Of a DNA stretch of 49,652 bases, positions 4,897-40,262 are shown piece by piece. The stretch spans positions 1-49,652 of the forward strand of contig JAJDBV010000019.1 in NCBI GenBank assembly GCA_029261165.1. Reading direction: 5' to 3'. The translations under genes and the position numbers were made by a program. Numbering within the stretch: the stretch's first letter is position 1; each line of letters opens with the position of its first letter. Origin of the DNA: Nitrospirota bacterium. GTDB lineage: Bacteria; Nitrospirota; Nitrospiria; SBBL01; JAADHI01. The notes under the pieces were generated by a model that worked only from the letters and a program-made list of their open reading frames with translations, did not search any database and was not told where the DNA came from.

Positions 4897-5038
4897 GTAG
4901 AGGTTTAGATTTCCTGGATTTTTATTCAGGGTAATGCGCGAGACGCACAGGAACCGGAGCCTAGCTCTACTACGTGAGGATTACGAGCATCGACACAACA
5001 AAGCCATGAAGTAAAAGAGAGGTAATATCAACCGCTAC
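4897..5038 (+). repeat. structured repeat, copy A (decayed)
   Basis: A 142-bp copy of the dispersed structured repeat, in the 374-bp gap before the HU gene. The termini pair imperfectly: 4897-4914 against the reverse complement of 5021-5038, 14 of 18 positions. The recognisable core includes GGAACCGGAGC and TACGTGAGGATTACGAGCA. It shares the ATTACGAG variant with copy B 400 bp away, so the two form a subfamily. The rest of the gap (4683-4896) is AT-rich and I see no gene in it. Confidence 0.75.
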
Positions 5039-5056: not shown

Positions 5057-5344
5057 ATGACCAAAGCCACCCTACTCGAGAAGATTTCAGGAGCTGTTTC
5101 TAAAAGTACGAAAGCTGAGGTGAGTAAAAAACAAGTGGATGCGATTTTGAAAGAGACCTTTGAGACGATTCGGAAAACGGTTAAGAAAGAAGGCCGATGC
5201 AGTTATCCTGGATTTGGGACGTTTACTTTAACGAAACGGAAAGCCCGAAAGGGCCGTAACCCTCAGACGGGCGAGACGATTAAGATCAAGGCATCTAAAT
5301 CCATCAGGTTTAAGCCCTCGGCCGCGTTGAAAAAAACGTTGTAA
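5057..5344 (+). CDS. HU/IHF-family DNA-binding protein
   Basis: A 95-residue HU-family protein with the usual layout: helical dimerisation region, then the beta-arm motif PGFGTFTLTKRKARKGRNPQTGE, and C-terminal KIKASKSIRFKPS. The RNP motif at the arm tip (GRNPQTG) is intact, so it should bend DNA. A good ribosome-binding site (AAGGAG) lies six bases before the ATG. The SRAP gene follows 18 bases later, probably in the same operon. HU versus IHF cannot be told from sequence alone. Being next to a restriction-like module, it may be the island's own nucleoid protein. Confidence 0.92.
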   Translation: MTKATLLEKISGAVSKSTKAEVSKKQVDAILKETFETIRKTVKKEGRCSYPGFGTFTLTKRKARKGRNPQTGETIKIKASKSIRFKPSAALKKTL

Positions 5345-5362: not shown

Positions 5363-6130
5363 ATGTGCGGCCGCTATTCTCAGACAAATTCCCTTGAAAC
5401 AATCCTCTCGGTTTTTGGTGTTTCTTCTCTGGATATTCGTCACGGTTCAGATGGGTTGTATTTTTCTCTAGGACAAGGCGCAAGGAGCGGAGGAACCGCA
5501 GCGGATGTGTCTATCCGTGAGGATTACGAGCACCGAAGTAACGACGGCCTGGTGGAGAAGCGGGCCGAGCTGAACCGTGACCGCCCTCGTTACAACATTG
5601 CTCCCTCCCAAGTCGCCCCGGTGATCGTTAATATTGACGGGACTCGCGTGCTGGATCTTTATCGGTGGGGCTTGATTCCGTCCTGGTCCAAGGATATGAA
5701 GATCGGGAATAAGATGATCAATGCTCGGTGTGAGACGGTCGGGGAGAAGCCCTCTTTTCGTCGCCTTGTGAACAAGCGGCGTTGTCTGGTTTTGGCAGAC
5801 GGATTTTATGAATGGCAAAAATCAGAGGATGGAAAATCAAAGACTCCGATTCGGATTATGATGAAATCAGAAGAGCCTTTTACTTTTGCGGGGCTTTGGG
5901 ATGAATGGCGGGATGCCGAAGGGCGGCCGCTTCGGTCTTATACGATCTTGACAACATGGGCCAATCCGCTCTTAAAGAAGGTACATGACCGGATGCCGGT
6001 GATTTTAAGGCCGGAGGGGATTGATCCCTGGCTAGATAAAAAGATAGAACTGCACGAGATGACCCGTATATTTGATACTTATCCGGAGCAGGAGATGGAA
6101 TATTATCCGGTTTCGACTTTCGTCAATTAA
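5363..6130 (+). CDS. SRAP (YedK/HMCES-like) abasic-site protein with repeat insertion
   Basis: SOS-response-associated peptidase family protein, 255 residues. These proteins form a stable crosslink to abasic sites in single-stranded DNA through Cys2, exposed after Met removal. The sequence starts MCGRY. The other active-site residues are visible: Asn78 in RPRYNIAPSQ, Glu124 in NARCET and His208 in KKVHDRMPV. In relatives the Asn falls at about residue 33-42; here it is at 78 because bases 5441-5579, a copy of the dispersed repeat, are read in frame as residues 27-72 (GQGARSGGTAADV and following). The catalytic core on both sides is intact, so the protein may still fold with a surface loop. 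The downstream gene starts about 90 bases later. Confidence 0.93.
   Translation: MCGRYSQTNSLETILSVFGVSSLDIRHGSDGLYFSLGQGARSGGTAADVSIREDYEHRSNDGLVEKRAELNRDRPRYNIAPSQVAPVIVNIDGTRVLDLYRWGLIPSWSKDMKIGNKMINARCETVGEKPSFRRLVNKRRCLVLADGFYEWQKSEDGKSKTPIRIMMKSEEPFTFAGLWDEWRDAEGRPLRSYTILTTWANPLLKKVHDRMPVILRPEGIDPWLDKKIELHEMTRIFDTYPEQEMEYYPVSTFVN
5441..5579 (+). repeat. structured repeat, copy B, inside the SRAP gene
   Basis: A 139-bp copy bounded by a perfect 10-bp inverted repeat (CACGGTTCAG at 5441-5450, CTGAACCGTG at 5570-5579). The core matches the other copies: ACAAGGCGCAAGGAGCGGAG, GAACCGCAGC, CCGTGAGGATTACGAGCACC. The apical stem is CGGAT/ATCCG where other copies have CGTAA/TTACG or CGTAG/CTACG, so both sides of the pair changed together. 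It is translated in frame as part of the SRAP protein. Confidence 0.88.
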
Positions 6131-27585: not shown

Positions 27586-27726
27586 GGTAACGATTCAGCA
27601 TGCCACGGTTTTTCTTCAGGCCAAGGCGTGAGGAGCGCAGAACCGGAGCGTAATGTTCTTACGTGAGGATTCGAGCACCACAGCAACGCAGTCATGGAGG
27701 AAAAGAGGGGTGTGCTGAACGTTACC
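27586..27726 (+). repeat. structured repeat, copy C
   Basis: A 141-bp copy. The termini GGTAACGATTCAGCA (27586-27600) and TGCTGAACGTTACC (27713-27726) pair with one bulge. Apical stem CGTAA/TTACG. Core GAACCGGAGCGTAA, TACGTGAGGATTCGAGCACC, CAGCAACGCAGTCATGGAG. Its right end overlaps the last codon and the TAA stop of the minus-strand ATPase gene. Confidence 0.9.
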
Positions 27727-39951: not shown

Positions 39952-40262
39952 GCGTAAGGACTCAGAATGCCCCCCTTTCCCTCCTTGGCGGCGTTGCTGT
40001 GGTGCTCGAATCCTCACGTATCAGGAGTCGGCCGGAGAAATAGGAACGTAGCGAGGTGAATGGAAAATAGAGACCAGTTTTGTTGATTGTTTGAGGCAAA
40101 TAGCACCGCTATTTAACGAGAATGATCTGCGAGAATGGGCCTATTTGCCATCATCGTAGTCGATTCATTATTTCTCCCGCAGACTCCTAACATTACGCTC
40201 CGGGTTCTGCGCGCCTCGCGCCTTGCCCTGAAGAGAAATTTGGGCATTCTGAGTCCTTACGC
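39952..40262 (-). repeat. structured repeat, copy E, with nested insertion
   Basis: 311 bp bounded by a perfect 21-bp inverted repeat (39952-39972 and 40242-40262, starting GCGTAAGGACTC). On the minus strand it contains the family core in two halves (GAACCCGGAGCGTAATG at the 5' side; ACGTGAGGATTCGAGCACC and CAGCAACGC at the 3' side), separated by 40023-40188. That 166-bp insert has its own ends pairing at 18 of 20 positions and a central 9-bp stem (GGCAAATAG 40095 / CTATTTGCC 40141). Without the insert the copy is 145 bp, like the others. Confidence 0.88.

What the first reader, a model, noticed from the sequence alone, without database searches (positions are those of the whole stretch)
5441..5579. 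In-frame repeat insertion inside the SRAP (HMCES-like) gene
The 139-bp copy B encodes residues 27-72 of the protein. Without it the catalytic Asn falls at the position usual for YedK-like proteins, and Cys2, Glu124 and His208 are all intact. A structured repeat living in the reading frame of a DNA-repair protein recalls the Rickettsia palindromic elements (established precedent), but in a different repeat family.
Basis: partly seen in the sequence, partly recalled or inferred. Interest (0 to 1): 0.85.

Follow-up and report, generated by a model that had tools for sequence, protein, structure and literature searches.

The report
Mobile hairpin repeat inside repair gene
A 143-base mobile hairpin repeat, present about 80 times in this Nitrospirota genome and otherwise found between genes, sits in frame inside a DNA-repair gene (SRAP/YedK family), where it should be translated as a floppy 46-residue loop; the gene still evolves like a working gene, so this looks like a repeat tolerated, or put to use, inside a protein.

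Summary
Window 5439-5581 is a full-length copy of a dispersed hairpin repeat lying in frame in an SRAP gene (5363-6130). The repeat is a MITE-type mobile element, not a Rickettsia-like coding repeat: terminal inverted repeats GTAAC...GTTAC, an exact 8-bp target duplication across copies (z = 10), a covarying hairpin, and about 80 copies in the genome. The SRAP copy is the only one of about 83 tested that interrupts a gene with a recognised domain. Two SRAP paralogs in the same genome lack the element but keep a 34-36-nt remnant whose best match among 60 copies is the window copy itself, read in reverse; the insertion therefore probably predates their divergence. The insert-bearing gene shows strong purifying selection (omega about 0.13 on private changes). 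AlphaFold gives a confident SRAP core with a disordered insert (residues 29-68). Translation is inferred, not shown. Wider surprise: the same hairpin core is carried in related bacteria by elements with different ends and a 4-bp duplication.

The parts
5363..6130 (+). SRAP (YedK/HMCES-like) gene, 255 codons, carrying the in-frame element; C2, N120, E150, H208 intact
   Evidence: ORF; Pfam PF02586 E 9.6e-71; AlphaFold2 plus Foldseek to 2f20, HMCES, YedK; purifying selection
5439..5581 (+). MITE-type hairpin element (143 bp), inside SRAP codons 26-73
   Evidence: covariance model 133.7 bits; MFE -62.7 on + strand versus -43.5 on - strand
5439..5450 (+). left terminal inverted repeat GTCACGGTTCAG (family GTAAC...)
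5570..5581 (+). right terminal inverted repeat CTGAACCGTGAC (A-T to C-G double change keeps the pairing)
6128..6130 (+). stop codon TAA where both paralogs have TCA; removes the conserved C-terminal tail, whose coding sequence is still recognisable just downstream
4897..5038 (+). second copy of the element (copy A), upstream of the HU gene
   Evidence: 119.8 bits
27587..27725 (+). further copy of the element, intergenic
   Evidence: 137.3 bits
30614..30752 (+). further copy of the element, intergenic
   Evidence: 146.7 bits
40120..40260 (-). degenerate copy of the element or of a sister family; a second weak hit at 39954-40094 (-)
   Evidence: 24.8 and 12.6 bits; core pattern hit at 40001-40018
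5057..5344 (+). HU-family DNA-binding gene directly upstream of SRAP (18-nt gap)
   Evidence: Pfam PF00216 E 6.1e-27

Best explanation
A non-autonomous inverted-repeat transposon (MITE, with ends and target duplication of the IS66 type) inserted, before three SRAP paralogs of this lineage diverged, into the variable loop between the first helix (residues 11-18) and the first strand of the conserved core (residues 76-79) of an SRAP protein. In the window gene the element stayed whole and in frame and is translated as a flexible, disordered loop of about 46 residues that leaves the catalytic core intact. In the two paralogs nearly all of it was deleted, in frame, leaving 34-36 nt. The gene is kept by selection despite the insert. 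Shown by computation: the element, its mobility signature, the remnants, purifying selection, the predicted fold. Inferred: translation of the insert, enzymatic activity, and that the loop is neutral rather than useful.
For: Exact 8-bp target duplication over 84 copies (mean 3.60 of 8 matches versus 2.13 permuted, z 10.3; lengths 7 and 9 far lower; five perfect). Hairpin pairing in 91.7% of cells, 23 of 39 pairs changed on both sides, 0 of 500 shuffles as high, 32-42% for slid structures. An IS66 in a same-family genome has GTAAG ends and the 8-bp duplication GAATTTAT. Paralogs at C19 and C21 are 84-85% identical, lack the element and keep GTCACGGTTCAGAT; of 60 copies in both orientations the window element (reverse complement of its right arm) is the best match to both remnants, scores 40 and 44 against at most 28 for any other copy. 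Private changes in the window gene: 19.5 silent, 8.5 amino-acid changing, omega about 0.13, p 6e-8 against neutrality, similar to C19 (0.10). AlphaFold: core pLDDT mostly above 90, insert below 50. All 76 other SRAPs have a short loop here.
Against: No recognisable target duplication at this copy (2 of 8), as for other old copies. No IS66 transposase in the window's own genome. The C-terminal tail present in all relatives retrieved is lost to a nonsense codon. The paralog tree is unresolved and the best tree makes the two deleted paralogs non-sister. The remnants match the opposite arm of the element, which needs an inversion or arm conversion. The remnant beyond the shared 14 nt is only marginally above shuffles when compared with all copies (p 0.07-0.22), though strong in register with the window arm (1e-5 and 6e-5).
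Confidence: 0.75

Rival explanations
1. The gene is a young pseudogene: a redundant third SRAP copy that tolerated the insertion only because two intact paralogs cover its function, and that has now also lost its C-terminus.
For: Nonsense codon removing the conserved tail with the downstream coding sequence still intact, so recent; two intact paralogs.
Against: Strong purifying selection on the branch that, given the remnants, carried the insert for its whole length; frame kept open through a 143-bp non-coding-type repeat; all catalytic residues intact.
Confidence: 0.2
2. The repeat is an RPE-like coding element specialised for insertion into ORFs.
For: In-frame location, hairpin, similar length of 100-150 bp (PMC3767692, PMC10969869).
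Against: 1 of about 83 own copies in a recognisable gene, none of 40 copies in two related genomes; no conserved reading frame.
Confidence: 0.04
3. The hairpin is not translated but removed or bypassed (RNA processing, ribosome hopping, or precise DNA excision in part of the population).
For: Very stable hairpin on the coding strand (-62.7 kcal/mol), flush with the insertion ends.
Against: The frame is open through the insert; no intron or other Rfam family matches; no precedent in this family.
Confidence: 0.03
4. The 46 residues are an ordinary host-encoded loop that resembles the repeat by chance.
For: Paralogs share HGSD at the same place.
Against: Full-length covariance match of 133.7 bits, 81% identity to intergenic copies, no other relative with a long loop.
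Confidence: 0.01

Closest known systems
Rickettsia palindromic elements (RPE) and Wolbachia palindromic elements
   Same: about 100-150-bp palindromic repeat in frame inside a protein gene; insert predicted as a surface or disordered extension
   Different: different sequence and phylum; here almost all copies are intergenic, the reading frame is not conserved between copies, and there is a clear 8-bp target duplication
Bacterial MITEs (ERIC, Correia/NEMIS, BOX and similar)
   Same: short, non-coding, terminal inverted repeats, many intergenic copies, hairpin transcript, occasional in-frame fusion
   Different: this family was not found in Rfam at gathering score nor in the papers searched; ends GTAAC...GTTAC with 8-bp duplication; one strand folds much better than the other
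IS66 family insertion sequences
   Same: ends begin GTAA and the target duplication is 8 bp (seen in an IS66 of a same-family genome)
   Different: the element has no transposase, its ends diverge after GTAA, and the window's own genome has no detectable IS66 transposase
SRAP proteins YedK and HMCES
   Same: fold, Cys2, Asn (N120), Glu (E150), His (H208)
   Different: 46-residue repeat-encoded insert between the first helix and the core, and a missing C-terminal tail

Membership tests
SRAP (PF02586) | full-length domain match | tested here: met
   E 9.6e-71, profile 1-212 of 214
SRAP (PF02586) | catalytic Cys2, Asn, Glu, His (YedK C2, N75, E105, H160; PMC9436759) | tested here: met
   C2, N120, E150, H208
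SRAP (PF02586) | DNA-protein crosslinking to abasic sites | not testable with these tools
   needs biochemistry
MITE | terminal inverted repeats | tested here: met
   GTAAC...GTTAC in most of 60 copies
MITE | target-site duplication of fixed length | tested here: met
   8 bp, z 10.3 for the family; not visible at the window copy itself
MITE | no transposase gene, small, many copies | tested here: met
   most copies 135-176 bp, about 80 copies
IS66-derived MITE | ends shared with an autonomous IS66 in the genome | tested here: not met
   no PF03050 in own genome; the IS66 of G001 shares only GTAA and the 8-bp duplication
Rickettsia palindromic elements | frequent in-frame location in ORFs with a conserved coding frame | tested here: not met
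   1 of about 83 copies in a recognised gene; frame open in 13 of 60
RAYT-associated REP elements | copies flanking a Y1 transposase gene | tested here: not met
   Y1 transposases exist but no element within the loci fetched around them
Rfam RNA families | gathering-score match | tested here: not met
   only a tRNA in the window

The most novel reading that the evidence does not exclude
The hairpin core is a functional nucleic-acid module of Nitrospirota that has been packaged by at least two unrelated transposon end types (GTAAC ends with 8-bp duplication; GGGCACCTCTAAA ends with 4-bp duplication), and in this lineage it was additionally recruited as a coding segment that gives the SRAP repair protein a new loop with a use of its own (for example binding a partner such as the adjacent HU protein or nucleic acid).
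Probability: 0.15. Interest if true: 0.75.

Novelty: new member of a known kind. Interest (0 to 1): 0.48.

Why it matters
In-frame capture of a palindromic mobile repeat by protein genes is best known from Rickettsia and Wolbachia. Here a normally intergenic MITE in an unrelated phylum did it once in a DNA-repair enzyme, and the genome itself supplies controls (insert-free paralogs with remnants), so the cost or benefit of a repeat-encoded loop can be tested directly. The finding also exposes a large, apparently undescribed hairpin-repeat superfamily in Nitrospirota.

Tried and rejected
RPE-like coding repeat: rejected because copies are intergenic and the frame is not conserved. REP/RAYT origin: Y1 transposases present but no element beside them. 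IS66 transposase in own genome: none. Rfam: no match beyond a tRNA. Papers on Nitrospirota MITEs of this kind: none found in the open-access library, which is incomplete. Resolving whether the two remnant paralogs are sisters: not possible, all three topologies stay in the AU confidence set. Other in-frame copies in own genome and in two related genomes: spanning ORFs have no Pfam domain across the element, or the element lies upstream of the true start. Laying the whole genome in the script box was not available.

Full report
What is there. The ORF 5363-6130 (+) is a complete SRAP domain protein (PF02586, E 9.6e-71, profile 1-212 of 214). It lies 18 nt after an HU gene (5057-5344). Inside it, 5439-5581 is a 143-bp element with 12-nt perfect inverted ends, GTCACGGTTCAG and CTGAACCGTGAC. 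The stated 5441-5579 is this element without its outermost two bases on each side, and residues 27-72 is correct. The motif YNxAP, at residue 30-36 in 76 SRAP relatives, is at 77 here.

The repeat family. A DNA search found 16 copies in the window's own genome. A covariance model built from 15 of them found at least 56 (the first-look cap), and a core pattern gave 80 hits against 0 for its reversed control. In 60 copies the ends are typically GTAAC...GTTAC. The flanks show a target-site duplication of exactly 8 bp: mean 3.60 matches of 8 against 2.13 in permuted pairs, z 10.3, with five perfect cases (84 copies, including some from same-family genomes). The hairpin is supported by covariation: 91.7% of cells pair, 23 of 39 pairs have changes on both sides, 0 of 500 shuffles reach the observed values, and slid structures fall to 32-42% (the structure came from 15 of these sequences and the alignment was fitted to it, so the controls lean in its favour). 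The + strand folds better than the - strand in 55 of 60 copies, which fits a role of the + strand as RNA or single-stranded DNA. These are the marks of a MITE. GTAA ends and an 8-bp duplication are, from my general knowledge, typical of IS66; an IS66 in a same-family genome indeed has GTAAG ends and the 8-bp duplication GAATTTAT. No IS66 transposase was found in the window's genome, so the mobilising enzyme is not identified.

How unusual the location is. The element normally lies between genes, often tightly: in 26 of 60 copies the right end is within about 7 nt of the stop codon of a neighbouring ORF (ORFs are mechanical, and the TAA in the element's own end supplies the stop in many of them). 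Of about 83 own copies examined, only the SRAP copy interrupts a gene with a recognised domain. Other ORFs that span a copy have no Pfam domain, or the element lies upstream of the true start. Forty copies of related families in two other genomes gave none. The SRAP frame is open in 13 of 60 copies, so the element is not a coding repeat.

History. The same genome has two more SRAP genes, at C19:4511-5164 and C21:59084-59737, 84-85% identical to the window gene in the shared part. They lack the element but carry GTCACGGTTCAGAT at exactly the insertion point, and about ten residues more than other relatives. When the remnants are compared with 60 element copies in both orientations, the best match of both is the window SRAP element itself, in reverse complement (27 of 36 and 28 of 34 identical; scores 40 and 44 against at most 28 for any other copy). 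Beyond the shared 12-nt end, 16 of 22 (C21) and 16 of 24 (C19) bases match in register, binomial p 1e-5 and 6e-5, against 9-11 for the left arm. The simplest reading is one insertion before the paralogs diverged, an inversion or arm conversion in one lineage, and in-frame deletion of most of the element in the other two. Whether there was one deletion or two is open, since the paralog tree is unresolved. A later regain of the element by the window gene cannot be excluded.

Is the gene alive? Private substitutions of the window gene are 19.5 silent and 8.5 amino-acid changing, omega about 0.13, p 6e-8 against neutrality, similar to insert-free paralog C19 (0.10) and lower than C21 (0.22). Cys2, N120, E150 and H208 are intact. 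AlphaFold (61-sequence alignment) gives a core mostly above pLDDT 90 and the insert 29-68 mostly below 50, with Foldseek matches to 2f20, HMCES and YedK. Against full function: TCA, present in both paralogs, is TAA at 6128-6130, so the tail SPRNDGPxCWER, of which the relatives listed all have a version, is missing although its coding sequence is still readable just downstream. This is either very recent decay, a tolerated truncation, or a sequence error.

Conclusion. A MITE captured in frame in a repair gene, tolerated as a disordered loop and kept under selection at least until recently. The phenomenon is known in kind (RPEs; in-frame MITE fusions, PMC10969869, PMC3767692); the repeat family and the phylum are new to the sources I could search.

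Beyond the finding. The same core (GTGAGGA, CCG, AACG and others nearly invariant) is found across the class and in other classes of the phylum, in elements with other ends: GGGCACCTCTAAA...TTTAGAGGTGCCC with an exact 4-bp duplication (z 9.8) and CAGGCTGTTCAAAA...CAACAGCCTG. One core with several end types suggests that the core has a function or advantage of its own, and it deserves its own study.

Noticed in passing
L240-L279 (two related genomes, G008 and G010), L142-L147, compared with window 5439-5581: The same hairpin core occurs in elements with different terminal repeats and different target-duplication lengths (8 bp with GTAAC ends; exactly 4 bp with GGGCACCTCTAAA ends; a third type with CAGGCTGTTCAAAA ends), as if one core had been packaged by unrelated transposon ends.
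   Followed up: partly
L010, L013, L016 (left arm) and L009, L014 (right arm): An 18-nt segment TGGCTTCGCGAGACCCAT is nested in the left arm of some copies, and its reverse complement in the right arm of others, suggesting inversion or conversion between the arms.
   Followed up: no
60 own copies, e.g. window 27587-27725 and L163: Copies sit strikingly close to gene ends; in 26 of 60 the right end is within about 7 nt of a neighbouring ORF's stop codon, often with the TAA of the element's GTAAC end serving as the stop.
   Followed up: partly
upstream of the SRAP paralogs in L035 and L039, and flanks of L002, L003, L006: A second repeat (ATCGTAGCGAGAGTGACTAAGGTGCTTGAGG...GTGTCTATACGGTGAGAGAGAAATGTTCTGG) precedes both insert-free SRAP paralogs; its centre resembles the core of the present element.
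   Followed up: no
window 6128-6130: Nonsense codon in SRAP removes the conserved C-terminal tail although the following 14 codons still encode it.
   Followed up: partly
60 own copies: The + strand of the element folds more stably than the - strand in 55 of 60 copies because several stem positions are mostly G-U, which hints at a role as RNA.
   Followed up: partly
L238 (G001:C11:5598-6461): An intact IS66-type insertion sequence with GTAAG ends and perfect 8-bp duplication GAATTTAT in a same-family genome.
   Followed up: partly
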